Positions 12,680 through 60,596 of a stretch of 64,000 nucleotides of DNA are shown one piece after another. The number at the start of each line of letters is the position of its first letter. The stretch's first letter is position 1. The stretch covers positions 1 through 64,000 of the forward strand of contig CAJQUW010008977.1 in NCBI GenBank assembly GCA_907163375.1, in the 5' to 3' direction. Source of the stretch: Prostheceraeus crozeri. Taxonomy: Eukaryota > Platyhelminthes > Polycladida > Euryleptidae. Below the pieces are notes generated by a model that searched no databases, had not been told where the DNA came from, and saw only the letters and a list, made by a program, of their open reading frames with translations. The translations under genes were made by a program, and so were the position numbers.

Positions 12680-14192
12680 CAGTAGTGGTAAATTACCGGT
12701 AAATTACCAACACACAATTGATCATTTTTCGGGGTTTCCTCATTATATTTTGCTATGAAAAAATTTACAATACACTCACAATTCTCAGGTAGCCTAAAAA
12801 ATTTAGAGTTTCCTAAAATTAGTAAATCATAGCTTATGTATCTAACCTATAAATGTATTCAACCAGGTGTGTATGAATAATTCGATGTTAATAGTTCTGC
12901 CACAGAATTAGGCAGGTCGTCTCTTCTTCTGTTTGACTAGAAGGGAAACATTGGAACATGCAGCGTTAATGAAATGGCACAATCTGCTGACATAATACCA
13001 TAGCAATCGAACAATGAGCAGCCAGTTCAACATTAAACACGCCAAATTGTGCAAAGTTTCAGTGACTGCTAGCAACCGGATCACACAACAAAGTGACACA
13101 GTCGATGTCAAGTTCTACAGAGAAGTTTGTGAACGTTTTTTCATGCGCCTGCTAACATTTTAAATAATGATCGGAGGACTATCGAGATAACTTTTGCACA
13201 ATAATCTGAATTGTTCGAATCTGAAGGAATCGTGACGATCGGAGCATTTTGAAGGAATTCACAGCAATCCGCAAGCGGCGCATACCTATTTTTCCTATTT
13301 CTGCAAGGCATGAAAAATTTATTTTTGCCCACTTAGTAAGTTCCTGTATGTGTCATTGATTTGAATCAGTTTTCCCTTTTAGCAAAATGATGCCTTTAAA
13401 CAATCTAATTATGTGAAATACCATTCACTTTGCCATCACCAACCCCTGGCAGTACTAAAGAATGCCTGAATTTATAAAATTTCACACTAGTTGCTATCTC
13501 TTCAACACGCATTTAAAATTTTCTATTTCTGGTCTCTCATTGGTTGAGACGATCGCTATTGCTCTCTTATCAATGCCTTTATGCACCTTTATGATGATTG
13601 TAGCCTGCGCGCGTATTGTCAAATTTTACCAGGTGGCTGCAATAGGGACGATATCTGCATATTCTTTCCATTGATGATCTCTCTCTCTCATATTATAGTA
13701 ATATTTATTACTAATTGTAGTTATAAAAATACATTTCTTGAAACAATATTGTCTCCATGTATCTAAATTTACCGCGCATAGATTTCACACTCCTTCTAAC
13801 ATTCATAAGTGGTTTGGATCGTACTTGTAGAAAGCTAAGGATCTGCATGTGTATAATTTACAAAATATTATAGAGCATGTGGCCTAACCCTACGACAATG
13901 TTTATTTGCCGTCAAACTTTTGATTATTAAAGTCTATTTGGGTGAAATACCAACAAATTTTTTAAAAATGTCAATTTTTCATTTCCTAATTGCAATATCT
14001 ATGACAAAGAATCAGACGCTGAGCAAAATTCAAGTCTTCATCAGAATCAGATTGAGCCAAGTGTGTGTTTAGTTGAAATCAAAGCATATTGGTGCGCTCG
14101 ATTTGAAGTTACACGGACTTGAATATAAATTACCGGTAATTTACCAGCAAGGTAACTTAAAATAAATTACTGGTAATTTTTAAACACTACTG
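12680..14192. mobile_element. Non-autonomous TA-flanked DNA element (Tc1/mariner-like)
   Basis: The left end is cagtagtggtaaattacc and the right end is its imperfect reverse complement, ending cactactg. Both are flanked by TA (12678-12679 and 14193-14194), as in Tc1/mariner elements. Inside each end is a taccggtaa palindrome motif. No transposase frame is visible in the 1.5 kb. A hAT-like MITE at 12901-13415 is nested inside, so this element is older. The TA context is short, so the superfamily call is tentative. Confidence 0.55.
12901..13415 (+). mobile_element. hAT-like MITE copy A (nested)
   Basis: This copy starts cacagaattaggcagg and ends aatctaattatgtg. It belongs to the family at 16315, 27035, 37739, 38251, 47263, 51106 and 60083 and is collinear along its whole length. 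No convincing 8-bp duplication remains, unlike in most sister copies. The family reading frame is interrupted by a TAA soon after the HNLLT codons. It lies inside the TA-flanked element at 12680-14192. Confidence 0.85.
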
Positions 14193-14194
14193 TA

Positions 14195-15093
14195 CAGTAT
14201 CTGACATCGAAAGGCGAAAACTTATATTATTATTCGTACGCGATTATTTCTCAAAATCTAAGATGATTCAAGCCATCTGCTCTACGATTGCACCAAGACA
14301 ATTGCCTCGTTCCTTAAAGTTCGTCGTTGACTTCGCTCGCACTTCAGTACGGCATAATTCTTTGCATGATTCGCCTTGCTTATGATTCTGGTATATGGTT
14401 GGTGTACAAACATTTCTTGATTATTTTCGTGTTTGACTTTCTGCATGATTTTCATTCTGTCAAATATATACACTACTACTATTGTGAGTCAAGTGACTCA
14501 ATGATTTAACGGTTCAAGATTAAAAGATATCGTATCATCCTGCTGTTGTCTGCACAAAGCGGCAGAATTTATATTCCTAAATGCACATTGTTAAGTACAT
14601 TCAGATGAAAACATAATCATATTGAACATAATTTCATCCTAATTACTCCTATCGCTGATATCATGATGTTTCCATTTCATTAACTTACATTTTGTATGCA
14701 ATTGCTTAACAGTAGTAATGATAGGGCCTAGTTGATTCTTGTTTTGACTATTATCCACATTCTCCAGATATTCTAACTGATTGATTACAAATGTCGTGTT
14801 AGCTGTTGCACTTGATTGGATCTTAGTTGTATCGAGATTTCATAGGCAGTTAGACGAATGCGCCTAAGTATACATTATAAAGAGATAGTGTTGTGCAGGA
14901 GGCAGGTAATCTTGAGCCCTTCACAAGCCCTTGATTTACCCGTTACTATGTTTTCTATTTAATATGCTAACAATACTATTGATGTCACTCCGTTTTGCAT
15001 TCCACACGTTTAGCAGTAATTTGCGCATATTTAGAAGTTTATATAAAAAGCATGTTTACATAGTTATAGCTAGCTTTTGAGGTCTATGTATAG
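14195..15093. other. Intergenic, nothing recognised
   Basis: No gene or repeat could be supported in this AT-rich stretch. Confidence 0.35.
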
Positions 15094-15191
15094 GATATCA
15101 AACGATATTTGAAAGCATTATCAACATAAAAAACGACGGCCGCAGGCCCGAGTTTGTCATAGGATAATGCTTGAAAATATCGTATGATATC
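15094..15191. repeat. Hairpin repeat with GC-rich tip
   Basis: Arms of about 29 bases (gatatcaaacgatatt... and its near-perfect reverse complement ...aatatcgtatgatatc) flank a 40-base loop containing a GC-rich palindrome, cggccgcaggccc. Looser pairing continues a few bases outside. The architecture, AT-rich arms with a GC palindrome at the tip, matches the hairpin at 17581-17685 although the arms differ. It is probably a tiny MITE; a structured RNA is the alternative. Confidence 0.6.
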
Positions 15192-16306
15192 TATCAACGC
15201 ATAGTTTTACCTGTAGTTCGGAGTGTGATATTTGATGGTTTCCGTTTGTTATGTACATAATACACGGAATATATCAGGCAATGATCATAGATTTCTAGAT
15301 GCTATAGAAATCCATGCAGAAGTCCATGGAAATATCCAAATCCATGAATTTCTATTCGAGTTATTTACCGCATGAAGACGGCGTGAATTTCCATCAATTC
15401 TGTTTTTGGCCTACCACTACATGTACATCAATGGTGTCAAATTGTTGTTTTACAACTTACTACTCAGATCCCAATGACGGGCATGGAAAACAAGAAAATT
15501 TTGAATCTCAACATTCTTGAAATATAGCATGACTCAAGCTTCATAAAATGCAAATGGTTCAATGATCCGTTTAGCTCTGACGGCATTCAAAGTTTGTCAG
15601 CTAAAATTGTGCATTTTATGACTTCCTCTAAGAATGAGTGAACTTGTAGCAGCATCAAGAATCAAAGATGTCCTTCGGGGTTGCTCAATGATTGAAGAAA
15701 ATTCTGCCCCATTTAATCAATACACAAGACCGAAGTGGTGAAATCTTGCTGTTACAGGTTATGGAGCATGACATACCACCAAGCGAGGTATCAACACCTT
15801 GGACAGTGGCAGATTACAGTATGCGCTCAATTAGGATGGAATTCGTCGATGGACCCTATTATAGGAATCAAACAGGCCTCCAATCCAAGCTTTATTTCGC
15901 AAAATTATGCAGCAATTCTTTTATATGCTTATAGCGATACAGATTCACTACCAGACCTTTTCCTTTGAACCCTAGGTCTTCAAACTATGTGATATTTGTT
16001 CATCTAGGAATTCATGAAAATTTCCGTGTGATATTTTTTCATACAATACACTGAGATCATTGGAAGACCAGAGATATCTACACTAAACTATGCGTTATTA
16101 CGATATTATCAGCCGACACTACATGTAGACAACAAAGTAGCTTGTATTGCATAATTTGATATCAATTTCTGGATCAGGTGATATCAAGGAGCATCAACCG
16201 TTTGAGTTAGTGATTTCAATTTTGATAATCATCGATGGGGAAAGTAGATAATACCATAGATAGAAGAACCATCTTACAGTGAATGCCATAGTATTGAAGG
16301 TTATCC
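15192..16306. other. Intergenic, nothing recognised
   Basis: The 80-codon and 77-codon frames at 15692-15968 overlap in different phases and match nothing I know. No structural RNA or repeat end was seen. Confidence 0.35.
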
Positions 16307-16314
16307 ATGGAATC

Positions 16315-16836
16315 CAGAGAATTAGACAGGTCGCTTCTTCTTCCGTTTGACTAGAAGGGAAACATTGGAACATGCAACGTAAATGAAATGGCACAATCTC
16401 CTGACTAAATACCATAGCAATCGAACAATGAGCAGCCAGTTCAACATTAAACACGCCAAATTGTGCAAAGTTTCAGTGACTGTTATCAACCGGATCACAC
16501 AGCAAAGAGACGCAATCGATGTCAATTTCTACAGAGAAGTTTGTGAACGTTTTTTCTAGCGCCTGCTAAGTTTTTTTGAAATGATCAGAGGGCTCAACAT
16601 TATCGAGAAAACTTGTGCGCAATGATCTGAATTCTTCGAATCTGAAGGAGTCGTGGCGATCGGAGCATTTTGAAGGAATTCAGAACAATCCGCAAGCGAC
16701 GCACGACTATTTTTCCTATCTCTCTAAGGTATTAAAAATTTCTTTCTGCCCACTTATTAAGTTCCTGCATGTGCCATTGCTTTGAATCAGTTTGCACTTC
16801 CAACAAAATGACACGATTAAACAATCTAATTCTGTG
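16315..16836 (+). mobile_element. hAT-like MITE copy B with perfect 8-bp duplication
   Basis: Terminal inverted repeats are cagagaattaga at the left and taattctgtg at the right. The identical octamer atggaatc flanks the element at 16307-16314 and 16837-16844. An 8-bp duplication with CA...TG ends is the hAT superfamily signature. The 522-base interior matches the other copies. The internal reading frame runs to a TAG at the TTTTTC-TAG position, so this copy is closed where others continue. Confidence 0.92.
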
Positions 16837-16844
16837 ATGGAATC

Positions 16845-17580
16845 AATCAATGCTATCTGACCAATTTTCGTACTGATATTGCAAATTATCAGCTCAGAGA
16901 TTTACATAGAACACTTCTCCAGGAGGTTGATAATAAAACTGTTTAAAACGTTAAAATGTCTTTTTGTAAAAAAATCTTTTCCCAACTCTGAATAGAAGTA
17001 TGGTAGTTGGTAAAATGTCCATTGAACCCTCTCTGATATCCTCCAATCAAGCAGTTTGGCTAAAACACGCAATTCTGATCAATTTCAATACACGTTGCAT
17101 TAAACTTTCACTAACTTACAAAAGATGTATTTAGAATTTTTGCTCACGAAGTTCTGCCATCTTGGAGATATTGCAAGCCAACTTTTGAAGCAACTTTTCC
17201 CATAGTTTCCTGCCGTTGGTTAAGGATTCGTTACGTTATTAACTTGCCCTCGAGGCCTCTTGCATTAACTAATTAACTTGATGAATGACGTAGATACGAA
17301 ATAAATTCAGTAATAAAACGGTTTCTAACACATCAAGTTGTATTAAATTTCAGAGCCGATGAAAGTGATTCAAACTCTGACACATGTGAGAAGATGTCAC
17401 CGAAATTGTGAAAGAATCACCGAATTAGACTAATTACAATGAGATGTGCAGATAGCTATTGACAAAGGTGAGATGTCTGTGACATTCAGGCGCTTACGCG
17501 CCCTCAAATGTCCTTGTTAGCATTCTAAATCTTGATGTTCCTAATTTCTATGAATGATTGCAAAAGGAAAACAATATTAT
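16845..17580. other. Intergenic, nothing recognised
   Basis: No gene, repeat terminus or structured RNA could be supported. Confidence 0.35.
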
Positions 17581-17685
17581 AGTGATATAACTACGACATC
17601 TGTACTACCACAGAAAATGTAGCACGAGGCGAAGCCGAGTGCTACATCTTTCTATGGTAGTACAGATGGAGTAGTTATATCACTA
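17581..17685. repeat. Near-perfect hairpin repeat, GC-rich tip
   Basis: Arms of about 45 bases, from agtgatataactac... to ...gtagttatatcact, enclose the tip gaggcgaagccgag. The arms include actaccacagaaaatgtagc and the matching gctacatctttctatggtag with only a few mismatches. Weak pairing continues a few bases outside to about 17574 and 17690. The fold is very stable for its size and is most likely a foldback MITE. Confidence 0.7.
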
Positions 17686-17807
17686 TTATCAAACGATCAA
17701 GAAATGTCAATGAACTCTATGGACCAGTGACGATATAGACAATCTGCTAAGAACACAAACGTGGTTGGCTTTCCATGGCATCCAAAGTCCTAGTAGATAG
17801 CCTATCC

Positions 17808-19672
17808 ATAGACTTCTAAATTTCTCTGGACAGATAGGTTGAAATTTGCCTCATACATGTTCAGGCCAGCAATCCTAAATTAGACTACTGCAAATAGACT
17901 GTCATCGAGCGTTATCAAAATTTAGAGAACGTATTGCCAGAACAAAGCAGGTAAAGCACAGTATGTGTCTATATTTATGTACATTGTGAGTATAAGGATG
18001 CATGAGAATGAATGGTTATGCGCTGAATACATGTGCTAGACATCCGCGTTATTAGCCAATTTTTGCGATTTTTCTTCTAAGAAGTCTCAGAAATGAGGCA
18101 TCTGAGATGTCATGAACAAATTTCTTGCACAAGCTGTTGAAATATTTCATTGAAATTTCGGAAATCTGATTCATGTACGTATGTGCACCAAGATTTTGCG
18201 AAGAAGTAATCGGAAAAGTCAGTAAGAGAACTGATATATCGATAGCCTATTCTGAGCACCATCCTTTTATTTTTTTAAAACAAGAAGCTATTTTCTCTTA
18301 GACAACTATTCAGCTGGGTCTCATAGAATACCTTCTTGAAAAGAATGCATGGCTGAAGTACAGATGCGTTTGGACCCCATGATAAATTTTATTCAAAAGT
18401 TTTGCAGCTTCAGATATGTCGAGCATTGCCAACTTAATATTTTTGACTGTGCATTCACTACAGGAATCACATTTTTTTTGAATTTCAACTAGCACCACTG
18501 GCATCATCTCACTTTCTCGAGTACTTGTCATTTTTCTCAGAAGTGTCTCCATCACAGGTTGGACCGCTCCATATCTGTTCCGACCTCCTCAGAAGTGGCT
18601 GCTCAGGTTGGGAATGCTTATTGAGTCCATCATCATTGTAATCATTGAAATATAAGAAGGAGCTTTCTGTTCCTCTTGATTTCAGGACATTTAAAGTGTG
18701 GGAATCGGCGGCTTCTCTTTTCCTCTCGACATTGTCCCTGAGCATGTTCAATGATATTGGTAGGATCTAGCGTTAATCTTCCGTCCGTAGACTTCAACTG
18801 CACCAGCAACTTTATCAGCCTTTCCCAAGTATTACACAGCTGAATCCGATTTCGAATTTCTTTTACTGTTTGGTCATCCAGATATTATACAAAAGTCATC
18901 AGATTGATAACTTTGGAAAACTTGTGATACATGATATGTGCTTGTTGGAATGGATTTCTCTCTACGTGATAGATGCGAACATTCACAGATGACGCTGAAG
19001 GGAAGATTTCAACTTATGTTCGTCATTTTGTAGTCCATGATCGCTTTGAGATATCACAAACCCAGATAGAATGATTTCCTTGCTGATTTTAGACAAAATC
19101 TTCTTTCTAAAGAATCTTCCGAATGTGCTTCCATTGCCAGGACATGTATTTAAAAACGTAGCCCTGCCGAATCGCAACTTTGTAGTTGTTTGGAGAAGAA
19201 ATTAGATATAAAGGAATTTGATGGCACTGTCCTTTAGATTACACTTTTTCATTTTTTCTTCTTTGCACTTTCATTTTTTTACTTTCTTCAAGCGATAATA
19301 GTCTATGTACTTCGTGATGGTATTGTCGTCAGGTTCGTGGAAGTGGAGGTCACACAAGACGGAATGTTTAGTTGGGATATAATACTTTCTACTAACTCGA
19401 TGCAACTATACAGATTCAAAATTCCTTGTTATGCAGAGGAATACATTGCTGTCACACTATCATTGCATTTAGGTTGACAACCAGCAGCGGCATATTTATT
19501 TGGTATTTTGCATTAGATTGAATCGCACAAGAGACACATGAAATAGTCATTTATCCCTTCGATTATCTACAAGATTCGATCTTCTGTAACACAACTGTTG
19601 GTTGGCCTGAACATGTAGAAAATGATTTCAAATTTTGCTCACCTATCTGTCCAGAGAAATTTAGAAGTCTAT
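17808..19672. mobile_element. DNA transposon with 9-bp duplication, family unknown
   Basis: Perfect inverted ends of about 32 bases begin atagacttctaaatttctct and continue ggacagataggt. Looser similarity runs on to about 75 bases, with catgttcaggcca in both. The nonamer agcctatcc directly flanks the element at 17799-17807 and 19673-19681. A 9-bp duplication with long inverted ends suggests a Mutator-type element, with Merlin-like types as alternatives. The 1.86-kb body holds degenerate minus-strand coding sequence. Confidence 0.75.
18310..19177 (-). pseudogene. Degenerate coding remnant inside the 9-bp-duplication element
   Basis: On the minus strand, pieces of plausible coding sequence change frame several times. 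One piece, at 19177-18983, has a basic RFFRKKILSKISKEIILSG stretch. A second, near 18880-18740, reads VKEIRNRIQLCNTWERLIK. A third, at 18751-18310, includes a CDSCSECTVKN cysteine cluster. No catalytic triad or known domain could be identified. The position between inverted ends suggests a decayed transposase or a captured gene. This is the least understood coding-like stretch in the left half. Confidence 0.35.
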
Positions 19673-19681
19673 AGCCTATCC

Positions 19682-25705: not shown

Positions 25706-26177
25706 TATGCAATTAATTACAAATTTTGAAGTAATACTACAATTTTGTATTACGTGTACAATTTGGTAAAACAAATACAAAATGAGCATAATTAACAGTA
25801 ATTACAGAAGGGTTGGACGGGAAGAAGACGTCAGACTGAGGTAGTTGCCCCTCAAAATAGCAAACGACAAGCGCTGGAACAGCCAAGTCGACTCTCTAGC
25901 GTCCCCCGTTCGCCGTGTCATGCGACGACCCAAGTCCTTAAGAAAGTTCAGGGTCGCAGGGCCGAAGACCCCAGTCGTTTCAACGGCGACCGGTGTAAAA
26001 ATGTACCGGGGTTGGAGAGCTGAGTATTTTGACGTTTTCCTGGCTTCAGCTGCATTCGCCGCGCATCCAGGATCAACCGCTGAATCGTTGGCGACGGACG
26101 AGGAAAAGGTGTCCGAGCAGGTCGCATCCCACACGAGCGACTTGCCCTCTGCGAACGGGAAAACTGTCATACCATCC
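25706..26177 (-). pseudogene. LINE 3' fragment: C-terminal end of a reverse-transcriptase polyprotein
   Basis: The minus-strand frame at 26170-25802 encodes the characteristic end of a non-LTR retrotransposon ORF common in marine invertebrates: KSLVWDATCSDTFSSSVA, an alanine-rich EARKTSKYSAL helix, then FTPVAVETTGVFGP, FLKDLGRRMTRRTGD and LFQRLSFAILRGN. The stop at 25802 is followed by a roughly 100-base AT-rich 3' region. Its 5' side abuts the foldback element. It interrupts the BEL gag. Confidence 0.75.
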
Positions 26178-26925
26178 TAGTCTGGGAGCTAGCGTGAAGT
26201 TGTGCAGGGAACGAGGTAGTACATAAAACTTTCACATAGCATAGTACACCTCTAACCTACTGCAAAACTTCGCGTCTGCCGGATCAGATCATTTGCTTTT
26301 AAGAAATAGAAAGGATAACACAATCCTATGTATTTCCAGTGGTGAAATTGTGACATTTAAGGTGTTGACTCCATTTTTTCGAATTTTTGCTCATAAAAGT
26401 TACACAAATTGGTATTTTGTTGAACTGGTTATTATAGAAATCATCTACAGATCATGATCTTTCAAATGAGTTATCATTCAGTGACAGAGGATGAAGTAAA
26501 GTGTACAAACAGACACATTTTGTTAAAGTATATCAACAATTTTCCTGAAATTCCTATGTTAAAATTTGCAGTTACACCAACGAAAAGTGTCCGTTTGTAC
26601 ACTTTACTTCATCCTCTGTCACTGAATGGTAACTCATTTGAAAGATCATGATCTGTAGATGATTTCTATAATAACCAGTTCAACAGAATACCAATTTGTG
26701 TAACTTTTATGAGCAAAAATTCGAAAAAATGGAGTCAACACCTTAAATGTCACAATTTTACCACTGGAAATACATAGGATTGTGTTATTCCCTCTATTTC
26801 TGAAAAGCAAATGATCTGATCCGGCAGACGCGAAGTTTTGCAGTAGGTTAGAGGTGTACTATGCTATGTGAAAGTTTTATGTACTACCTCGTTCCCTGCA
26901 CAACTTCACGCTAGCTCCCGGACTA
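26178..26925. mobile_element. Foldback element 1 (giant inverted repeat)
   Basis: Arms of about 344 bases (26178-26521 and 26583-26925) are near-perfect reverse complements separated by about 61 bases. The outer ends, tagtctgggagctagcgtga and cagggaacgagg, match the ends and tandem units of the element at 55073-56345. The inner arms differ between the two. There is no coding capacity. One flank is LINE sequence and the other is BEL protease, so a deletion accompanied or followed insertion. Confidence 0.85.
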
Positions 26926-27034
26926 AAATGGGAAACTATTCTATTCAGATAACAACTGTAACTAATACAGTTACGAGAAACTCGACTTCGACTTCATTGC
27001 TGGTCTCGTCTTTAGATCGACAAAGAATCTGTTC
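26926..27034 (+). pseudogene. BEL/Pao protease fragment, part 1
   Basis: This short stretch of element interior, between the foldback and the hAT-like MITE, reads TVTNTVTRNSTSTSLLVSSLDRQRIC in one frame. When the MITE is ignored it continues directly into 27640-27752 (SLIDEVISVKELPMS). The octamer atctgttc is repeated at both MITE junctions. The pattern fits the DUF1758 protease region upstream of the LLIGAN motif. The catalytic aspartate itself is not visible. Confidence 0.55.
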
Positions 27035-27639
27035 CACAGAATTAAATATTTTGTTTATCTGCTTCGGTTTGCTAGAAGTGTGATTAATACGAAACTGACG
27101 GCACATAGAGGAACCTATTAAGTTGGCAAAAAGGAATTCCTAATACCTTAAGAGATAGGAAAAAAGTCGTGCGTCGCTTCCGTATTAATGTGAGTTCCAG
27201 CAAAGTGCTTCGATTGCCAAAATTCCTTCAGATTCGAAGACTTCAGATCATTGCGCACAAATTTTCTCCATAATGTCGGCCTTTCCAATCATTATTAAAG
27301 AAAGTAGCAGGCGTACGAAAATTAGTTCACTTGATGATTTCACATCCTCTCCTCGGCATTTCTCACTGTATAGTGCATACATTGAATCGAAGCCACGCAT
27401 CGATGTGTGTTTTGGTGTGTGCGACGTGATATTACAGCACGCACGCATCTCTCACTGGCTCTGGTATCCTCTGCTGACAGCTTATTGTTTGCCATTTCCA
27501 ATAGCAAGCGATACACGAATTATCCATTCGAGAAGTAGCAAGTTGTCTAATTCTGTGATGTGCCATTTCGATATTAAGGTTTGATATGATTCTTCCTTTC
27601 TAGGAAACCGAAGCGCGCGCAGATGAATCTAATTTTGTG
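27035..27639 (-). mobile_element. hAT-like MITE copy C with perfect 8-bp duplication
   Basis: This copy starts cacagaattaaatatt and ends gaatctaattttgtg. The octamer atctgttc flanks it at 27027-27034 and 27640-27647. The first half is collinear with the family in reverse orientation; the second half diverges and is longer, giving 605 bases. It lies inside the BEL/Pao protease region, so it is younger than that element's insertion. Confidence 0.88.
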
Positions 27640-37738: not shown

Positions 37739-38809
37739 CACAGAATTAGATTGTTTAACTGCATCACTTTGCTAGAAGTGCAAACTGATTCAAAACGATG
37801 GCACATGCAGGAACTTACTAAGTGGGCAGAAAGAAATTTTAATACCTTGCAGAAATAGGAAAAATAGTCGAAATAGGAAAAATAGTCGCAATCCGTCGCC
37901 TGCGGATTGCTCTGAATTCCTTCAAAAAGCTCCGATCTCCACGATTTCTTCAGATTCGAACAATTCAGATCATTGCGCAAAAGTTTCCTCGATAATGTTA
38001 GGCCCTCCGATCATTATTAGAAAAGTTAGCAGGCGCATGAAAAAACGTTCACAAACTTCTCTGTAGAACTTGACATCTTCTGTCTCTTTGCTGTGTGATC
38101 TGGTTGATAACAGTCACTGAAACGTCGCACAATTTGGCGTGTTTAATGTTGAACTGGCTGCTCATTGTTCGATTGCTATGGTATTTAGTCAGGAGATTGT
38201 GCCATTTCAATATAGCGTTACATGTTCCAATGTTTCCCTTCTAGTCAAACCACAGAATTAGACAGGTCGTCTCTTCTTCCGTTTGACTAGAAGGGAAGCA
38301 TTGGAACGTGCAACGTTATTGAAATGGCACAATCTGCTGACTAAATACCATAGCAATCGAACAATGAGAAGCCAGTTCAGCATTAAAAACGACAAATTGT
38401 ACAAAGTTTCTGTGACTGTTATCAACCGGATCACACAGCAAAGAGACACAGTCGATGTCAAGTTCTACAGAGAAGTTTGTGAACGTTTTTTCATGCGCCT
38501 GCTAACTTTTTTAAAATGATCGGAGGGCCCAACATTATCGAGAAAACTTTTGCGCAATGATCTGAATTCTTCGAATCTGAAGGAATCGTGGCGATCGGAG
38601 CATTTTGAAGGAATTTAGAGCAATCCGCAAGCGACGCACGACTATTTTTCCTATCTCTGCAAGGTATTAAAAATTTCTTTTTGCCCACTTATTAAGTTCC
38701 TGCATGTGCCATTTGTTTGAATCAGTTTGCACTTCTAGCAAAGTGACACAGATAAACAATCTAATTCTGTGAGTCAAACGGAAGAAGAGACGACCTGTCT
38801 AATTCTGAG
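37739..38809 (-). mobile_element. hAT-like MITE copy D1, interrupted by copy D2
   Basis: This copy starts cacagaattagattg and ends ctgtctaattctgag. The octamer catacatc flanks it at 37731-37738 and 38810-38817. Copy D2 interrupts it near its end, with D1 resuming at 38780. An 18-base stretch, gaaataggaaaaatagtc, is tandemly duplicated near 37860. A minus-strand frame in D1 (37980-37528) keeps the family ATDCDYFSYFDYFSYF-type segment. Confidence 0.92.
38251..38771 (+). mobile_element. hAT-like MITE copy D2, inserted within copy D1
   Basis: Complete 521-base copy starting cacagaattagacagg and ending aatctaattctgtg. The octamer agtcaaac flanks it at 38243-38250 and 38772-38779. Removing D2 and one octamer restores the sequence of D1. 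The family frame is open from 38283 to 38519 in this copy (78 codons). Confidence 0.95.
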
Positions 38810-38817
38810 CATACATC

Positions 38818-43043: not shown

Positions 43044-43230
43044 CACAATAAAGAGGCACTCATGAAAGCATTTTGAAAACTTTTTCCTGCACTTTTAAAT
43101 GATGACTGGACGTTTCAACGTTTTCGACAAATTTAATGCACAATTATTTGAATTCTCCGACAATGGGACAATCGTGGCGATCGGAGCATTTTGAAGGAAT
43201 TCACAGCAATGAACAGCCGAGCATTATTTT
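43044..43230 (+). mobile_element. hAT-like MITE, degenerate partial copy
   Basis: The central part of the family is recognisable, including caataaagaggcactcatg and cgtggcgatcggagcatttt then gaaggaattcacagcaat. Both termini are lost. It is the most diverged member seen. Confidence 0.65.
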
Positions 43231-43585: not shown

Positions 43586-43592
43586 AAACGAA

Positions 43593-44485: not shown

Positions 44486-46118
44486 CAGAGACTGTTGTCT
44501 TTCCGCAATGATAAGCCCAGAGGCTGGTGTCTTTCCGCAATGACAAGCCCAGAGGCTGATGTCTTTCCGCAATGACAAGCCCAGAGGTTGATGTCTTTCC
44601 GCAATGACAAGCCCAGAGGTTGATGTCTTTCCGCAATGACAAGCCCAGAGGCTGATGTCTTTCCGCAATGACAAGCCCAGAGGCTGGTGTCTTTCCGCAA
44701 TGACAAGCCCAGAGGCTGATGTCTTGCCGCAATGACAAGCCCAGAGGCTGATGTCTTTCCGCAATGACAAGCCCAGAGGCTGATGTCTTTCCGCAATGAC
44801 AAGCCCAGAGGCTGATGTCTTTCCGCAATGACAAGCCCAGAGGCTGATGTCTTTCCGCAATGACAAGCCCAGAGGCTGATGTCTTTCCGCAATGACAAGC
44901 CCAGAGGCTGATGTCTTTCCGCAATGATAAGCCCAGAGGCTGATGTCTTTCCACAAAGATAAGCCCAGAGGCTGATGTCTTTCTGCAATGAGAAGCCCAG
45001 AGGCTGGTGTCTTTCCGCAATGACAAGCCCAGAGGCTGATGTCTTTCCGCAGTGACAAGCCCAGAGGTTGATGTCTTTCCGCAATGACAAGCCCAGAGGC
45101 TGATGTCTTTCTGCAATGACAAGCCCAGAGGTTGATGTCTTTCTGCAATGACAAGCCCAGAGGCTGGTGTCTTTCCGCAATGACAAGCCCAGAGGCTGAT
45201 GTCTTTCCGCAGTGACAAGCCCAGAGGTTGATGTCTTTCCGCAATGACAAGCCCAGAGGCTGATGTCTTTCTGCAATGACAAGCCCAGAGGTTGATGTCT
45301 TTCTGCAATGACAAGCCGAGAGGCTGATGTCTTTCCGCAATGACAAGCCCAGAGGCTGATGTCTTTCTGCAATGACAAGCCGAGAGGCTGATGTCTTTCT
45401 GCAATGACAAGCCCAGAGGTTGATGTCTTTCCGCAATGACAAGCCCAGAGGCTGATGTCTTTCTGCAATGACAAGCCCAGAGGTTGATGTCTTTCTGCAA
45501 TGACAAGCCGAGAGGCTGATGTCTTTCCGCAATGACAAGCCCAGAGGTTGATGTCTTTCTGCAATGACAAGCCGAGAGGCTGATGTCTTTCCGCAATGAC
45601 AAGCCCAGAGGTTGATGTCTTTCTGCAATGACAAGCCGAGAGGCTGATGTCTTTCCGCAATGACAAGCCCAGAGGCTGATGTCTTTCCGCAGTGACAAGC
45701 CCAGAGGCTGATGTCTTTCCGCAATGACAAGCCCAGAGGCTGATGTCTTTCCACAATGACAAGCCCAGAGGCTGATGTCTTTCCGCAATGACAAGCCCAG
45801 AGGCTGATGTCTTTCCGCAGTGACAAGCCCAGAGGCTGGTGTCTTTCCACAATGACAAGCCCAGAGGCTGATGTCTTTCTGCAATGACAAGCCCAGAGGC
45901 TGATGTCTTTCCGCAATGACAAGCCCAGAGGCTGGTGTCTTTCTGCAATGACAAGCCCAGAGGCTGATGTCTTTCCGCAATGACAAGCCCAGAGGCTGAT
46001 GTCTTTCCGCAATGACAAGCCCAGAGGCTGATGTCTTTCCGCAATGACAAGCCCAGAGGCTGATGTCTTTCCGCAATGACAAGCCCAGAGGCTGATGTCT
46101 TTCTGCAATGACAAGCCG
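44486..46118. repeat. 32-bp minisatellite, about 51 copies, open in all three minus frames
   Basis: The unit is aagcccagaggctgatgtct plus ttccgcaatgac, with variants g/a in gctg(g/a)tg, c/t in ttc(c/t)gc, and gag for cag. Because 32 is not a multiple of 3, any frame cycles through all three phases. The minus-strand unit has no stop in any phase, so three overlapping minus-strand frames of 537-557 codons each encode the same 32-residue repeat (KDISLWACHCGKTSASGLVI and so on) shifted in register. Plus-strand phases contain stops. The frames are best explained by the repeat, not by a protein gene. Unit variants are patchily clustered, as in slippage or unequal exchange. Confidence 0.95.
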
Positions 46119-47254: not shown

Positions 47255-47262
47255 ATTGGAGG

Positions 47263-47784
47263 CACAGAATTAGATTGTTTTAGCGTGTCACTTTGGTAGA
47301 AGTGCAAACTGATTCAAAACTATGGAACATGGAGGAACTTATCAAGTGGGCAAAAAGAAATTTTTAATACCTTACAGAGATAGGAAAATAAGTCGTGCGC
47401 CGCTTGCGGATTCCTGTGAATTCCTTCAAAATGCTGCGATCGCCACCACTCCTTCAGACTCGAAGAATCTAGATCATTGTGCAAAAGTTTTCTCGATAAT
47501 GCTGGTCCTTCTGATCATTTTAAAAAAAGTTAGCAGGCACACGAAGAAGCGTTCACAAACTTCTCTGTTGAACTTGACATAGACTGTGTCTCCTTGCTGT
47601 GTGATCCGGCTGATAACAGTCACTGAAACTTTGCACAATTTGGCGTGTTCAATGTTGAACTGGCTGCTCATTGTTCGATTTCTATGGTATTATGTCAGCA
47701 GATTGTGCCATTTCATTAGCGTTACATGTTCCAATGTTTCCTTTCTAGTCAAACAGAAGTAGAGACGACCTGTCTAATTCTGTG
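47263..47784 (-). mobile_element. hAT-like MITE copy E
   Basis: This copy starts cacagaattagattg and ends ctgtctaattctgtg, 522 bases. The flanks attggagg (47255-47262) and atcggagg (47785-47792) are an 8-bp duplication with one change. The family frame is read on the minus strand and is broken by a TAA after HNLLT, as in copy A. Confidence 0.9.
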
Positions 47785-47792
47785 ATCGGAGG

Positions 47793-50095: not shown

Positions 50096-50132
<37 letters not shown>

Positions 50133-51097: not shown

Positions 51098-51105
51098 GTT
51101 CAGAT

Positions 51106-51619
51106 CACAGAATTAGATTGCTTTAGGGTATCACTTTGCTAGAAGTGCAAACTGATTCAAAACGATGCAGGTACTTACTAAGTGGGCAAAAAGAAATTTT
51201 AATACCTTGCAGAGATAGGAAAAATAGTCGTGCGTCGCTTGCGGATTGCTCTGAATTCCTTCAAAATGCTCCGATCTCCACGATTTCTTCAGATTCGAAC
51301 AATTCAGATCATTGCGCAAAAGTTTTCTTGATAATGTTAAACCCTCCGATGATTATTAAAAAAGTTAGCAGGCGCATGAAAAAACGTTCACAAACTTCTC
51401 TGTAGAACTTGACATCGACTGCGTCTCTTTGCTGTGTGATCCGGTTGATAGCAGTCACTGAAACTTCGACCAATTTGGCGTTTTTAGTGTTGAACTGGCT
51501 GCTCATTGTTCGATTGCTATGGTATTTAGTCAGGAGATTGTGCCATTTCATAAACGTGACATGTTCCAATGATTCCTTTCTAGTCAAACAGAAGAAGAGA
51601 CGACCTGTCTAATTCTGTG
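51106..51619 (-). mobile_element. hAT-like MITE copy F with long family ORF
   Basis: This copy starts cacagaattagattgc and ends ctgtctaattctgtg. The flanks gttcagat (51098-51105) and gtgcagat (51620-51627) match at 7 of 8 positions. On the minus strand the family frame is open for 92 codons (51587-51309), starting MTRKESLEHVTFMKWHNLLT, with no stop in the region where copies A and E are closed. Confidence 0.9.
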
Positions 51620-51627
51620 GTGCAGAT

Positions 51628-54137: not shown

Positions 54138-54231
54138 CGAGTTCATCCAAGTTAATGTTTCTCTTCTAGCTGTTCTCAAAGTTTGTTTAAATAGGCCCAC
54201 CGTGTACCACTCTCTGTTTTACTTATTGTAA

Positions 54232-54262
54232 CCTTGACAAAGCCGCAAGGCGAAATATTGGT
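54232..54262 (+). ncRNA. Hammerhead-like motif downstream of the Penelope fragment
   Basis: ccttgacaaagccgcaagg followed by cgaaatattgg has the layout core-1, stem gcc-gcaa-ggc, then cgaaa, like the hammerhead motifs carried by Penelope-like elements. Two core positions differ from CUGANGA, so it is probably inactive. It sits about 95 bases after the stop codon on the same strand. Confidence 0.4.
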
Positions 54263-54470
54263 TATCATAATAAATTAATTTAGTATCCACAGGAGGTTAT
54301 TTTTTCATCACGCTTCCATTCCGGATACGAGGATCACCTGATTTATTTGGAAGTTCTCATTTACTAGTACATCAGTTACCTTTTTAAAGTACTTTCAGAA
54401 TTCAGTTTACTAAAATATATTTCGATACGTTCTTCTCAATTTGCATTGAAATAAAATAAAAGTAATTTGC

Positions 54471-54506
54471 GAGCTTTCGATTGAACCTGTTACTCGTCGT
54501 CAGGTG
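54471..54506 (-). ncRNA. Second hammerhead-like motif, opposite strand
   Basis: On the minus strand this reads cacctgacgacgagtaacag, then tcgaaagctcgc, matching the layout at 9571-9604. The ctgacga and gaaa cores are intact here. It probably marks the edge of another Penelope-type insertion in opposite orientation to 53479-54137. Confidence 0.4.
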
Positions 54507-55072
54507 CGAATACAGAGAGTGGCAGGTTCACTCGAAGACTAGGAAAATTAATTCTATTTTACTTCAATGTAAATCGATTCAGAAGTTAAAGTTAATGATG
54601 AATGATTTGTAGTTTTTCTGAGGAACTGGAAGGCAACCCCGGTTAGTTTTCCGGCTCTATTCAACAGTTTAACTCCTCAGTTTATTTCATGTTGTGATTG
54701 ACTCAGTAAATGGCTTGACTCTATGCCTGCAAGTTTCATTGAATGCCAATCAATGTCTGCAAATAGAAGAAGCTGAAATCAGTCATCGAAAAAGATCATT
54801 ATTTAAAATATTTGTTATTAAGTATTATGTTTTTTAAGTGTTCACTACTTACTACAAGAAACGGCACCGCTCCAAATTTTATAGAAAAACTCAAGTATTC
54901 ATGGCAAACCTTTCAGAACAGCTTCCTAACACATATGTATGATTTTGATAGTCCGAGTTTTGTATTTCTATTACTGCTGTGGTCAAAACCTGATTACCAT
55001 TCAAAACTCGAGTTTCATCAAGCGCTCAGTGAAAATCGACTTCTATGGCCTACATGATCATCTACTGTATGT
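54507..55072. other. Intergenic, nothing recognised
   Basis: No gene or repeat could be supported; an 81-codon frame at 54812-55057 runs into the foldback element and is probably chance. Confidence 0.35.
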
Positions 55073-55700
55073 ACAGTCCAGCAGCCAGAACAAGTTTCTG
55101 CAGGGAACGAGGCCGAAAATGAGACTTTCACAGAATGAGGTACACCTCATAGTCCGGCAACAGCCAGCACGAGTTTGTGCAGGGAACGAGGCCGAAGATG
55201 AGACTTTCACAGAATGATGTACACCTCACAGTCCGGCAGACAGCACGAGTTTCTGCAGGGAACGAGGCCGACAATGAGACTTTCACAGAATGATGTACAC
55301 CTCATAGTCCGGCAACAGCCAGCACGAGTTTGTGCAGGGAACGAGGCCGAAGATGAGACTTTCACAGAATGATGTACACCTCATAGTCCGGCAACTGCCA
55401 GCACGAATTTCTACAGGGAATGAGGCCGGAAATGAGACTTTCACAGAATGATGTACACCTCATAGTCCGGCAACAGCCAGCACGAGTTTGTGCAGGGAAC
55501 GAGGCCGAAGATGAGACTTTCACAGAATGATGTACACCTCATAGTCCGGCAACTGCCAGCACGAATTTCTACAGGGAATGAGGCCGGAAATGAGACTTTC
55601 ACAGAATGATGTACACCTGATAGTCCGGCAGCCAGCACGAGTTTCATCAGGGAACGAGGCCGAAAATGAGACTTTCACAGAATGATGTACACCATATGCC
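55073..55700. repeat. 76-79 bp tandem array in the left end of foldback 2
   Basis: Eight units carry cagggaacgaggccg at 55101, 55180, 55256, 55335, 55414, 55493, 55572 and 55648, so the spacing is 79 or 76 bases. Each also has gagactttcacagaatgatg and acacctcatagtccggca. Units alternate between subtypes (tgtgcaggg and ctacaggg), suggesting duplication of two-unit blocks. Confidence 0.93.
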
Positions 55701-56345
55701 TATTACGAACCTGTGCGTCTGCCGAGTTCTAGTGAGTTCCTCTTCTTGTCAGACAGGATAAAAAAACACATGTAAATCCAATAGGATGCAGATTGCAGTT
55801 TTTGGCGAAGATGAAATTTTCTATGTTTTCTCTGATTAGACGAAAAGTACCAAGCCCAGAGTCATAATTTTTGGCATGGAATGTCTTCAGGTCATCCCTG
55901 TCTATAAAGCTAAACACATTTAATTTGGAGAGCCTCTCAATGTCGGTAAACACAAACATTTTGAGCTACTTTATCCACATTCAGCCACATTCTCACATAC
56001 ATTGCCGATCAGAAGCATAATAATAGCAAATGCACATAATAGGAAATGACCTGAAGACATTCCATTCCAAAAATTATGACTATGGGCGCAGAGCTTTTCG
56101 TTTAATCAGAGAAAACATACAAAATTTCATTTTAACAAAAACTTCCAATCTGCGTCCCATTGGATTTACATGTGTTTTTCTTTGATCCTGTCTGACAAGA
56201 AGAGGAACTCACTAGAACTCGGCAGACGCGCGAATTCGTGGTAGACATAGGGTGTACATCTCATCTTGTGAGATCGTGTACATCGTGTGTGAAAGTTTCA
56301 CTTTCGGCCTCGTTCCCTGCAGAAACTCGTGCTGGCTGCCGGACT
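55073..56345. mobile_element. Foldback element 2 with one amplified terminus
   Basis: The inner arms at about 55700-55990 and 56040-56235 are reverse complements, containing for example cctgtctgacaagaagagga and cattggatttacatgtgt with their partners. The outer right end (56262-56345) is a single unit ending ggctgccggacta. The outer left end repeats the same unit about eight times. The outer unit is shared with foldback element 1; the inner arms are not. There is no coding capacity and no clear target duplication. Confidence 0.85.
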
Positions 56346-57602
56346 AATACTATTCTTGTTACAGTGAAAGGGAACAAGTTGACGGTGATCGTTCGCCTGT
56401 TGAATAATAAGCTTGAATATCATTGCATTGATGAGACTCACGATGACTTCAACTGTCGCCGATTGGAACCCTTGGGGAAATTCAGGGAAGCGTGGGAAGT
56501 TGAGTATAACTGAGATATCTATGCTCCTTCACACCTCCTCTATCAACTGCAGCTATGAAGTTAATCATCTGACCCTCCTGTTCGAGACTCAGATACCTTT
56601 GTCGCAGACACAGTGATTCATTTATCCATTGAATAGTTTCAACGAAATGACTTGAAATAAACAGAGGTTGTCATTGTTTCACTACAAAACTCAAGTTTTT
56701 CACCATCGGATACTCGATTTTCAATTTCAAGATATTCACACAGATACTGTCCACATTCACTGCGGAATAATCTGAGAAATATTCTTATTAAATAAATCTG
56801 GTCTTGATTACAAACGTTAGAATGCATCAAGGTCAACCATGATTCCCTACGGACATCCTCCACTTGCTGTCTTCTCATGACAGAAGACAGTAAAGATTGG
56901 CGACTTAAGTGTATATGGAATCAAAGCTCGAATCATTACACATGAAAATAAAAGAGATGAAGAGCCATAAACTCGTCTACCTATTCCTGTCTCATTGAGG
57001 AGACAGGATGCCTCAGTTTGATGTCATTGTAATGAAGTGATCTGAGGAGAGGAGACAAGACCAACAACAAAGGATTCTCTTCATTTTCACAAGATATGTT
57101 GATCAATAAGACCTTTTCAAGTGTTCCAAGATCACCTAATTATGGACACTTGTCCATCAATGGTTTGAGCTTAGAAAAGGAAGGATTAGGACATCAAGAT
57201 TCAGTCATTTTCCAACAGTGAAATTAATATTCTGCTTTTATACTTGCCTTCGTCAACTAAATGTAGGAAACTGGAAGTGATAACTTTGAAAATTAGCATC
57301 TGTTGGTTATATATAGCTATGGATGACTTGTATCAGTTATTGTATCTGCTGAGTAGTGCTCAAAATATGAAAATCACTCAATTTACAAATCGCAAGTTTT
57401 CAAAAGAAAAACATGTGAATGTGATAATGAATCAGGCACGGGGAGAAAGAGCATTTTCTGAGCTCTATTTTGATATACTGGTCATCAAAATCAGTGACCT
57501 GGAAAAAATGAGGGATATCGTGAAGTTACCACAAAATCGTTACCTCAAGCATCGTAAAGTCCCATTTGTTTATGTAGATCCACGTTTCATACACTGAGTT
57601 TC
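56346..57602. other. Intergenic; one hypothetical ORF
   Basis: A 117-codon plus frame at 57244-57597 ends just before the LINE fragment. It includes LYQLLYLLSSAQNMKITQF and DILVIKISDLEKMRDIVKLP, with no recognised domain. It could be an exon or an unrecognised part of a repeat. Nothing else was supported. Confidence 0.3.
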
Positions 57603-58115
57603 ATACAGCTTGTTGCTCTTGACTTTCCTTCCGGCTTTATTTCCTGGCTGCACGATTATTTTCGTGGCAGAAACCAAAGAGTCAAATTCAAAGGTGCTCT
57701 CAGGTGTGCCACAAGGTTCCCTCTTGGGTCCTTACCTTTTTGTGTTTTACTGTTATGACCTACAACCGGCATGCACAGATATATTTTTGATACAATATGT
57801 TGATGATGTCTGCGATGTTATTGAGATAAGACATGATAACCATTTCTTTGATAAGTACAAGTTATCCTACAAAAAACTTCTCTGGTCAGCGAACTCACTT
57901 GACCATCCCTTACACTCATTAGTGCCATCAATTAAAAACAATCGAGTTTCTGATCTTACAGCTTTAACGAGCAGGAGGAGGAATTGTTTTACCGTGTATT
58001 ATTTACAATGGACTCGAGTCAATTTTATAAGTTGCTATTTCACTGAGACTTTGTATCTTTATTGTCCTTTTGATTTCAATTTCATTGAATAAAGGAATTA
58101 TGATTATTATTGAAA
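57603..58115 (+). pseudogene. LINE reverse transcriptase fragment with YVDD motif, internally deleted
   Basis: A frame shift joins LDFPSGFISWLHDYFRGR to LSGVPQGSLLGPYLFVFYCYD and QYVDDVCDVIEI. YVDD is at 57796-57807. The fold then jumps directly to a C-terminal block, SANSLDHPLHSLVPSI, showing loss of the thumb region. The sequence ends with ttatgattattattg, a short 3' microsatellite tail like that of the 40260-41180 LINE. It belongs to the CR1/L2-like group by eye. Confidence 0.78.
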
Positions 58116-58330
58116 CGTCATGACAACCGATGTTGTCCCAGATAAACAAACAGTCTCTCCTAATAACAAAAATGATATTCACAGAGTATATTGTTGGCGC
58201 AACACGTGTCTGGCCGAGCAATTGAAATTGCCATCAGCAAGCATCCATATATATTGTCTATTGTAGTCCCACTAACGTGGGCAAAGCTTTAAATCAGATT
58301 TCTATGGATAAGTGTCAGTTGAACTAAATA

Positions 58331-59998
58331 CAGGTTTTCCAGTTCGACAATGCGACTATCAGATTAAAGAATATGTTTTGAGATGCAACAACGGTATTTC
58401 TGTTAATCAGCAGCGTTTTCAATTGAATGATATTGTTTTTAATCGGTAGTGATAATAAGTGAGTTTATTAATGGATTTATAAGTTTAATGAGCGGCAACC
58501 TGAAATCATGAACGGCTTTTCATATTCAATTATATTTTATTTAACAGTTAAGTCAATACAAAAAGTTTTGATAATTATTTTAATTCATAAAGGTAATACA
58601 GTAAGTCATTAAAAACTTTTTTTACCAAAAGGTAAGTCAATACGAAAAAGTTTTGATAATCTTGAAATTTTTTATTCCGTTGTGAAACAAAACAAGTACC
58701 GTAATATTCATTGATGGTTTTGTAAGACATCCTCGCGATTAATTAGTCTAGGCATCAATCTGCCCATACGTCTGGAAGACCTTTCCATCTTATTTGCAGT
58801 GATGGCACTCATGTTTTGAGAGGCGAGTTGCAGTAAAGTCAAATTCCGCTGTTGTCCAGTGTAGTTGTGTAACTGCTCACGAATCTCAGTTACTTCTCTC
58901 TTGAAAGCCGCTTTCCACATGGAAAACGCGTTCTCTGCGATATTGAGAAATGGAGAGTAGGGCGGTAAGTACCTAATAGAGTGTCCCTCTCGCAAACTGA
59001 CTTCACGGGCTCTATTGTGGCACGGAGCATTATCCATGACGAATACACGAGGTCCAGCCCCAGCCGCAACGGACGCTTCTTCCAGCCAGGAGTTAAATCT
59101 CTCACAGGAGGTTCCGCCTTCGTAGAATTCATGATGGACGACACCTTCATTAGAGACCGCCAAGATGAGAGTAAAATTCCGCCCGCGCTGTCCATGAACA
59201 ATCCTGACAGCTCGCTCTCCCCGTCTGGCACGACCTCGTGTGCGACTGATCCATAAATTAAAGCCGGATTCGTCCACAAAAATAAATGTTGGCGGATGGT
59301 TTGCGTTGATCGTGTGCAGATACCAGTTCGCATACTCGGCCTTTCCACTTTGACGTCATGGCTATTGCGGTTGACTTGAAAAGTCTCCATTTTCTTTAAG
59401 ATGATAAGACGATTTCTCAGACGATGTGCTGATAGTTTGAATTGAGACAGATGGCTTGTCCGGCATCCGCGCTTGTAGATCAGCTTTGATTTGGGCTAAC
59501 GTGAATTCCGGTTGGGATTCAACAATCTCTACCACAGTATTTGCCATATCTTCGTCCATCTTTTGGTGTCGTCTTCCTCCTCTGGGACGCTCAATGACTC
59601 CTTCAAGTATATAACGATGTACTATTGAATACGCAGTACCCCGTTTTACACCGAGAACTCGAGCGGTTTCAATATAATCATCTCCGGCTTCGTGAGCCAT
59701 AATGATTCTGCGTTTAACATCAGAAGGTATTCGCTGGCGCTCCATATTGATAAGTTAATTTAGCAGATGTGAAGACATCTATATAGGGCTTTGGATCAAA
59801 CCGAATGGATATCATTTATTCTTCACAGGAAATACCGCTTACTAATCTGATAGAGACACAATTGAACTATTTTGCTGCAGTTTATTTATTGTTGTCGCTC
59901 TCAATTATGAAATGACGTAATATTTTATCTTTTAACGTTTTAGAAATTAAAGTGCCGCTCTTGATTCGGTAGTTGCCGCTGTCGTGTAGGAAAACCTG
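58331..59998 (-). mobile_element. Complete but inactive Tc1/mariner-type transposon
   Basis: Terminal inverted repeats begin caggttttcc at both ends and extend imperfectly for about 38 bases (left ...gcgactatcagattaaag, right ...gcaactaccgaatcaag). TA dinucleotides at 58329-58330 and 59999-60000 are the target duplication. The 1668-base length is usual for the superfamily. The body holds one minus-strand transposase gene with two frameshifts. Confidence 0.92.
58708..59745 (-). pseudogene. Tc1/mariner-like transposase (DDE_3), frameshifted
   Basis: The N-terminus (59745-59362) has a helix-turn-helix: RRIIMAHEAGDDYIETARVL then GVKRGTAYSIVHRYILEG, followed by RPRGGRRHQKMDED. Near 59420 the frame shifts into LRNRLIILKKMETFQVNRNS, and near 59345 it shifts again into AEYANWYLHTI. 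The catalytic domain is open from 59277: VDESGFNLWISRTRGRARRG, VFVMDNAPCH and LPPYSPFLNIAENAFSMWK. The acid residues are D in DESGF, D in MDNAPCH and E in IAEN, with 32 residues between the last two. The gene would cut and paste the element; two frameshifts disable it. Confidence 0.9.
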
Positions 59999-60082
59999 TA
60001 CTGAAAAATGGAACACTTGTTGAATAGATATTGAACCGATTCATTGCAGATCACAATTAGCGCTGATCTGAACAGCTGATAT

Positions 60083-60588
60083 CACAGAATTAGACAGGTC
60101 GTCTCTTCTTCCGTTTGACTAGAAGGGAAACATTGGAACATGTAACGTTAATGAAATGACACAATCTGCTGACTAAATACCATAGCAGTCGAACAATGAG
60201 CAGCCAGTTCAACACTAAACTCACCAAATTGTGTGAAATTTCTGTGACTGTTATCAACCGGATCACACAGCAAAGAGACACAGTCGATGACAAGTTCCAC
60301 ATAGAAGTTTGTGAACGCTTCTTCGAGCGCCTGCTAACTTTTCTAATAATGATCGGAGGACCAACATTATCGAGAAAACTTTTGCGCAAGGATCTGAAGG
60401 AGTCGTGGCAGTCGGAGCATTTTGAAGGAATTCAGAGCAATCCGCAAGCGACGCACGACTATTTTTCCTATCTCTGTAAGGTATTAAAAATCTCTTTTTG
60501 CCCACTTATTAAGTTCCTGCATGTGCCATCTGTTTGAATCAGTTTGCACTTCTAGCAAAGTGATGCGATTAAACCATCTAATTCTGAG
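60083..60588 (+). mobile_element. hAT-like MITE copy G with perfect 8-bp duplication and the longest ORF
   Basis: This copy starts cacagaattagacagg and ends catctaattctgag. The octamer gctgatat flanks it at 60075-60082 and 60589-60596. A 113-codon frame (60196-60537) joins two segments that are separate frames in other copies: RITQQRDTVDDKFHIEVCER and WQSEHFEGIQSNPQATHDYF. This suggests the family ancestor had one continuous frame. The protein is not recognised. Confidence 0.92.
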
Positions 60589-60596
60589 GCTGATAT

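What the first reader, a model, noticed from the sequence alone, without database searches (positions are those of the whole stretch)
12901..60596. One hAT-like MITE family with nine copies and clear 8-bp duplications
Copies at 12901, 16315, 27035, 37739, 38251, 43044 (partial), 47263, 51106 and 60083 share cacagaattag ends and a collinear body of about 510-600 bp. Flanking octamers are perfect for 16315 (atggaatc), 27035 (atctgttc), 37739 (catacatc), 38251 (agtcaaac) and 60083 (gctgatat), and one base off for 47263 and 51106. The ends and duplication length are the hAT signature. Nine copies in 64 kb implies very high genome copy number or local clustering.
Basis: partly seen in the sequence, partly recalled or inferred. 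Interest (0 to 1): 0.75.

Follow-up and report, generated by a model that had tools for sequence, protein, structure and literature searches.

The report
P-element MITE family, not hAT
The repeats are real, recently active short transposons, but their ends match a P-element transposon in the same genome rather than a hAT element, and their two ends carry the same motifs at spacings that differ by 11 bases, much as in the fruit-fly P element.

Summary
The window has eight near-complete copies plus one fragment; five have perfect and two one-off 8-bp target duplications. Two boundaries change: copy 38251 sits inside copy 37739 (true extent 37739-38809), and copy 27035 runs to 27639. In the 2.05-Gb host genome 29 of 30 fetched copies have a perfect 8-bp duplication; an exact 26-base left end occurs 4,125 times.

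The hAT label is not supported. A P-type transposon family (THAP, RNaseH_N, GTP-binding, RNaseH_C domains) ends in the same 14 bases. Copy 27035 carries that transposon's end inside its own duplication. Their ends share three blocks: CACAGAATTAGA, CTAGAA, AAATGGCACA. The CTAGAA-GGCACA spacer is mostly 33 nt at one end type and 22 nt at the other, recalling the 9/21-bp asymmetry of Drosophila P. None of 10 hAT loci read had this end.

P-derived MITEs are known from Anopheles, so this is a new member of a known kind. The 22/33 asymmetry and the clustering (3 of 30 fetched copies lie in older copies) are unusual. The transposon's left end was not reached.

The parts
12901..13415 (+). MITE-A copy, 515 bp, old (about 11% from young consensus), no target duplication
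16315..16836 (+). MITE-A copy, 522 bp, TSD ATGGAATC perfect
27035..27639 (-). MITE-B composite copy, 605 bp, TSD ATCTGTTC perfect; its bases 17-296 match reversed MITE-A 3' half (80%), its last 81 bases match the last 84 of the P-type transposon (about 86%)
27544..27557 (-). internal MITE-A-like left terminus inside the composite copy (14 of 14 bases); no octamer match here
27559..27639 (+). right end of the P-type transposon carried by MITE-B
37739..38809 (-). outer MITE-A copy interrupted by copy 38251; TSD CATACATC perfect
38251..38771 (+). young MITE-A copy nested in the outer copy, TSD AGTCAAAC; 99.8% to the young consensus
43116..43210 (+). fragment of the family (query 280-374), no ends
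47263..47784 (-). MITE-A copy, 522 bp, TSD one mismatch
51106..51619 (-). MITE-A copy, 514 bp, TSD one mismatch
60083..60588 (+). MITE-A copy, 506 bp, TSD GCTGATAT perfect
38287..38331 (+). long-spacer end of copy 38251: CTAGAA - 33 nt - GGCACA
38705..38738 (-). short-spacer end of copy 38251: CTAGAA - 22 nt - GGCACA

Best explanation
These are non-autonomous P-superfamily elements (P-MITEs) moved in trans by a THAP-domain P-type transposase encoded in the same genome. Proposed mechanism: the THAP domain binds the subterminal AAATGGCACA block about 58-84 bp from each end, the RNase-H domain cuts at CACAG, and reinsertion duplicates 8 bp at a palindromic GTTnnAAC-like site. One end has a 33-nt and the other a 22-nt spacer between CTAGAA and GGCACA, and a transposition-competent element would need one of each. 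Shown: one end shared with a P-type transposon, 8-bp duplications, near-identity of the fetched young copies, a composite element flanked by one octamer pair, the two spacer classes. Inferred: recent movement, that this transposase (FAM1) or a close relative is the mobiliser, that the blocks are its binding sites, and that a pair of unlike ends is required.
For: P-type transposon FAM1: THAP (Pfam E 3e-10, profile positions 20-62 of 87), RNaseH_N 6.7e-47, GTP-binding insertion 1.7e-15 and 1.4e-15 in two open frames, RNaseH_C 4.6e-13. Its right terminus is ...AATCTAATTCTGTG followed by unrelated flanks in L074, L075 and L072, the same 14 bases as MITE-A's right end. Copy 27035-27639 joins MITE-A sequence and FAM1's end within one perfect octamer pair. 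With the terminal 14 bases removed, MITE-A left end versus FAM1 right end scores 45, shuffles at most 35 in 2000. Exact CTAGAA..GGCACA pairs: 11 in the window, all in copies of the family, against a mean of 0.3 (maximum 2) in 20 shuffles; 22 rows in the window and L031-L082 (two rows are one genomic place; L001-L030 left out): 15 at 33 nt, 5 at 22, 1 at 34, 1 at 35. With mismatches allowed, 8 of 10 MITE-A rows have 33 at the left and 8 of 10 have 22 at the right; 3 of 3 MITE-B have one of each. 29 of 30 fetched copies have perfect 8-bp duplications; the target motif is palindromic (43% matching versus 26% in 2000 control draws, maximum 37%), to my reading most like GTTNAAC of 1360 and GTCCGGAC of P (PMC3276498, section 13). 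Mean pairwise divergence of the 30 copies 0.32%.
Against: FAM1's left end was not found in the 6 kb upstream of L074: only matches with 2-3 mismatches, none accepted, and three other contigs match right through to the first base read. So FAM1's own target duplication and left spacer are untested and its autonomy is not shown; C8050 and C857 (99-100%) could even be one duplicated or twice-assembled stretch. FAM1 is rare (10 near-full matches to its 325-bp end among 40 scored). hobo (hAT) has a GTNCGNAC target, so the target motif does not discriminate. MITE-A's body has no detectable relation to P coding sequence. The A-right end versus FAM1-right comparison is at chance (185 of 2000 shuffles as high). 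The end blocks as a set are not significantly better conserved among nine old copies than other positions (998 of 5000 circular shifts as low), and several old right ends have lost a block. Two further MITE-B elements, L080 and L081, have octamers that differ at 2 of 8 places (flanks). The 33-nt ends may be one lineage and the 22-nt ends another, so the spacing is not many independent observations.
Confidence: 0.87

Rival explanations
1. hAT-superfamily MITE, moved by a hAT transposase.
For: 8-bp duplications and short inverted ends fit hAT; hAT-like domains are abundant here (150 scored of 12,096 candidates); hobo target motif GTNCGNAC overlaps ours (PMC3276498, section 13).
Against: The same 14-base end, shared subterminal blocks and a bridging copy belong to a P-type transposon. 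0 of 10 hAT loci read (1.5 kb either side of the domain) carry the end within one mismatch; only 10 of 150 scored places were read, and long elements could end further out.
Confidence: 0.07
2. The P-type transposon only picked up MITE ends by nested insertion or recombination, so its end is borrowed and the MITE belongs elsewhere.
For: Composite structures exist (27035; L072 has a second right end inside a FAM1 copy), nesting occurs, and FAM1's left end is unseen.
Against: The FAM1 right end is terminal with differing flanks in L074, L075 and L072 and carries both subterminal blocks at 33 nt (34 in L071). Its last ~84 bp form a unit seen apart from the rest of FAM1: 30 of the 40 scored hits match only that part (839 first-look candidates), and a 21-mer of it occurs 4,654 times.
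Confidence: 0.06
3. The 22/33 spacer difference is an accident of two end lineages with no functional meaning (a rival to the end-rule part only; the P assignment would stand).
For: All examples could descend from one long and one short end; block conservation overall is not significant.
Against: Of 13 rows with both ends tested, 11 have a 33-nt end and 11 a 22-nt end (mismatches allowed), and MITE-B keeps one of each although its long end comes from FAM1; Drosophila P has a 9/21-bp difference at its binding sites (PMC7776569, passages).
Confidence: 0.4

Closest known systems
P-MITEs of Anopheles gambiae (PMC1562414; passages, section 6 read)
   Same: 8-bp duplications, ends shared with a P transposon, central region unrelated to P, one composite family with ends from two P subfamilies
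   Different: Copy numbers there 5-310; here over 4,000 exact left ends. What I saw of the paper mentions no end-spacing asymmetry.
Drosophila melanogaster P element (PMC7776569, passages)
   Same: THAP-RNaseH-GTP-binding transposase, 8-bp duplications, subterminal binding sites at unlike spacing at the two ends (9 and 21 bp)
   Different: Here the inverted ends are 11-14 bases, the blocks are 33 and 22 nt apart, and the related transposon exceeds 14 kb (2.9 kb in Drosophila)
Galileo (P superfamily; PMC3688188, section 12 and passages)
   Same: THAP site centred about 70 bp from the end, like AAATGGCACA at 58-84 bp here
   Different: Galileo has very long inverted repeats; here only 11-14 terminal bases plus blocks
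hAT MITEs such as Drosophila mar (PMC3517528, search listing only)
   Same: A MITE family of an 8-bp-duplicating superfamily
   Different: No hAT element with these ends found in the 10 hAT loci read

Membership tests
MITE (non-autonomous DNA transposon) | Short, no transposase gene, terminal inverted repeats, many copies | tested here: met
   About 522 bp, longest open frame 99 codons (20 of 300 shuffles as long), 4,125 exact left ends
P superfamily | 8-bp target duplication | tested here: met
   29 of 30 fetched copies; 5 perfect and 2 one-off of 8 in the window
P superfamily | Ends shared with an element encoding a THAP plus TNP-like RNase H transposase | tested here: met
   Met for the right end of FAM1 only; left end not reached
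P superfamily | Terminal motif CANRG (recalled) | tested here: met
   CACAG in 30 of 30 fetched copies
P superfamily | Full-length partner with both ends and its own 8-bp duplication | tested here: inconclusive
   FAM1 left end not found in the 6 kb upstream of L074
P superfamily | Transposase binds the subterminal sites | not testable with these tools
   Needs a binding assay
hAT superfamily | 8-bp target duplication | tested here: met
   Same data; does not discriminate from P
hAT superfamily | Terminal motif YARNG (recalled) | tested here: not met
   CACAG has C at the R position
hAT superfamily | Ends shared with an element encoding a hAT transposase | tested here: inconclusive
   0 of 10 hAT loci read, of 150 scored

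The most novel reading that the evidence does not exclude
P-superfamily transposition obeys a two-end rule like the 12/23 rule of V(D)J recombination outside Drosophila too: each mobile element needs one 22-nt and one 33-nt end, differing by about one helical turn, and the same transposase directs new copies into or beside older copies of the family.
Probability: 0.28. Interest if true: 0.7.

Novelty: new member of a known kind. Interest (0 to 1): 0.45.

Why it matters
It corrects the superfamily and points to a large natural data set (thousands of exact ends, some copies identical) for P-type transposition in a genome far larger than Drosophila's. The unlike end spacing makes an old question testable: whether the 9/21-bp asymmetry of Drosophila P, compared by its reviewers with the 12/23 signals of V(D)J recombination, is a general rule of P-type transposases. 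With both ends of many copies read, one could ask how often elements with two like ends ever moved.

Tried and rejected
CACAAAATTAG near the P-type domain in L032-L035 looked like a left end, but its flank is conserved between copies, so it is not a terminus. P-type families FAM2 (L036, L038-L056) and FAM3 (L057-L060) showed no such ends in the 3.4 kb read; FAM2's ends lie beyond it. The idea that the MITE body is a remnant of transposase coding was tested and dropped: no Pfam match for a 65-aa frame, open-frame length not significant, and tblastn hits, in the part of the output shown (cut at 3000 characters), only to MITE-B loci and to the shared end. FAM1 could not be placed on a solved structure: phmmer found nothing. 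Clustering was first judged against P and hAT loci (0 in 181 kb; 187.6 kb with only FAM1 ends), a poor control because those are largely transposon interiors; the genome-wide exact-end count replaced it. The host was not identified; only a COX1 hit with 8 in-frame TGA was seen. A paper search for local or nested P insertion gave 0 papers.

Full report
Observation. Eight are full or nearly full elements and one (43116-43210) is a fragment. Flanking octamers are perfect at 16315, 27035, 37739, 38251 and 60083, one base off at 47263 and 51106, and absent at 12901. Two boundaries need correcting. Copy 38251 lies inside copy 37739: BLAST shows the outer copy broken at 38250, and it resumes after the second AGTCAAAC and ends at 38809 with CATACATC on both sides. 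Copy 27035 ends at 27639, not at the internal CTAATTCTGTG at 27547.

Genome. The window is part of a 2.05-Gb assembly of 14,165 contigs. The 40 full-length hits scored for the 38251 copy are all at least 99% identical (only the best 40 of 2,127 candidates are scored, so this describes the young subset). The 30 fetched copies, one of them the window copy, differ by 0.32% on average; of the 25 with the consensus length, eight have no difference from the consensus. Of the 30, 29 have perfect 8-bp duplications and none match at 4-7 or 9-12 bp; the exception, L004, has an older family copy against its left end and no duplication. An exact 26-base left end occurs 4,125 times. Three of the seven MITE-A copies in the window carry it, so the total may be near 10,000; that is a rough extrapolation. 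The window's older MITE-A copies are 7-11% from the young consensus.

Clustering. The exact ends average one per 497 kb, but the window has three. Among the first 100 of the 4,125 places, those listed, seven neighbour pairs lie within 10 kb where 2.0 are expected (Poisson P 0.005). In the 1.5-kb flanks of the 30 fetched copies, seven have another family stretch: three copies (L001, L009, L018) are inserted in an older copy, L004 abuts one, and L012, L020 and L023 have one about 20-300 bases away. At about 10,000 copies the family fills roughly 0.25% of the genome, so three of 30 is well above random expectation (inference; regional heterogeneity not modelled, and L001 is in the window that prompted the question).

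Superfamily. The genome holds many P-type transposases (150 scored of 1,766 candidates for PF21787) and many hAT ones (150 of 12,096 for PF05699). One P-type family, FAM1, was read over 14.1 kb of one contig (C8050:9600-23695). It has a THAP domain match (E 3e-10, profile 20-62 of 87), then RNaseH_N, the GTP-binding insertion divided between two open frames (an intron is inferred), and RNaseH_C. Its right end is AATCTAATTCTGTG followed by different flanks in L074, L075 and L072; in L071 only nine flanking bases remain before the contig ends. MITE-A's right end has the same 14 bases. The window copy at 27035-27639 has about 280 bp of reversed MITE-A sequence at one side (80%) and, at the other, 81 bases that match FAM1's last 84 (about 86%), within one octamer pair. 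So both sequences appear to have moved as one unit. This 84-bp end is common: 30 of the 40 scored hits to FAM1's 325-bp end match only that part, and an exact 21-mer of it occurs 4,654 times. Four such places were read. L080 and L081 are of the 27035 type, with both ends found but octamers that differ at 2 of 8 places; L079 and L082 share only the right part and their left ends were not found in about 900 bases.

End architecture. Six aligned ends (two of them FAM1 copies) share the terminus, CTAGAA at 34-40 and GGCACA, in five of six as AAATGGCACA, at 58-84. With the terminal 14 bases removed, MITE-A left versus FAM1 right scores above all 2000 shuffles and MITE-B left is reached by 5 of 2000, while MITE-A right is at chance (185 of 2000). 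The exact CTAGAA-GGCACA spacer falls mostly into two values. In the window and L031-L082 there are 22 exact pairs: 15 at 33 nt, five at 22, one at 34 and one at 35 (L034 and L072 hold one place in common). Of the 22, 20 have the terminus within 60 nt upstream; the other two are cut off, L073 by the contig end and 38244 by the nested copy. Shuffled windows hold 0.3 pairs on average. With mismatches allowed, 8 of 10 MITE-A rows (nine old copies and the young consensus) have 33 at the left and 8 of 10 have 22 at the right; three of three MITE-B have one of each, the 33-nt end being the FAM1 one. In Drosophila P the two ends differ in spacing, 9 and 21 bp, which its reviewers compare with the 12/23 signals of V(D)J recombination (PMC7776569, passages). 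P's THAP sites lie at 53-63 and 41-51 bp and Galileo's about 70 bp from the end (PMC3688188, passages and section 12; the two papers assign the longer P spacing to opposite ends). The block at 58-84 bp here sits in a similar place. Against a functional reading: the blocks taken together are not significantly more conserved among nine old copies (998 of 5000 circular shifts as low); the left ones vary little (0-3% minor states) and so does the right terminus (2%), but the right subterminal ones vary more than average (9% and 16%, against 7% elsewhere).

Target site. The 29 duplications give a palindromic motif close to GTTnnAAC. The P-group element 1360 has GTTNAAC, P has GTCCGGAC and hobo, a hAT, has GTNCGNAC (PMC3276498, section 13 read), so this leans to P but does not decide.

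What remains open. FAM1's left end lies outside the 14.1 kb read. Three other contigs (C857, C100, C9353) match right through to the first base, with a shared reverse-transcriptase fragment in between; some of these may be duplicated stretches rather than separate insertions. So FAM1's own duplication and left spacer are unknown, and another P-type family may supply the active transposase, for example FAM2, of which 17 loci are at least 99.5% identical over 3.4 kb. Known precedent: P-MITEs of Anopheles gambiae, including a composite one, with 5-310 copies (PMC1562414, section 6 read). I therefore file this as a new member of a known kind, with an unusual end asymmetry and copy number.

Noticed in passing
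L038-L055 (e.g. G000:C2695:43800-44210): A second P-type transposon family, FAM2, with 17 loci at least 99.5% identical over 3.4 kb, suggesting very recent activity.
   Followed up: partly
L077:1-898: A reverse-transcriptase fragment (RVT_1), probably of a LINE, lies upstream of the THAP match and is shared by four FAM1 contigs.
   Followed up: partly
44486-46117: A 51-copy minisatellite with a 32-bp unit that is open in three minus-strand frames over more than 500 codons.
   Followed up: no
61363-62940: A 36-bp minisatellite with a 250-bp higher-order period.
   Followed up: no
3682-4822: A 41-copy array of a 28-bp unit just beside a sodium:solute symporter frame.
   Followed up: no
1771-3615: A 614-aa sodium:solute symporter (PF00474) in one uninterrupted frame on the minus strand.
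   Followed up: no
58708-59745: A broken transposase, probably Tc1/mariner-like: DDE_3 and helix-turn-helix parts in separate frames.
   Followed up: no
26172-26931: A 353-bp inverted repeat, 96% complementary, with 54 bases between the arms, just upstream of copy 27035.
   Followed up: no
L004:1501-2022: A young copy beside the same MITE site (AGTCAAAC) as window copy 38251 but with no duplication on its right: perhaps deletion or recombination after insertion.
   Followed up: partly
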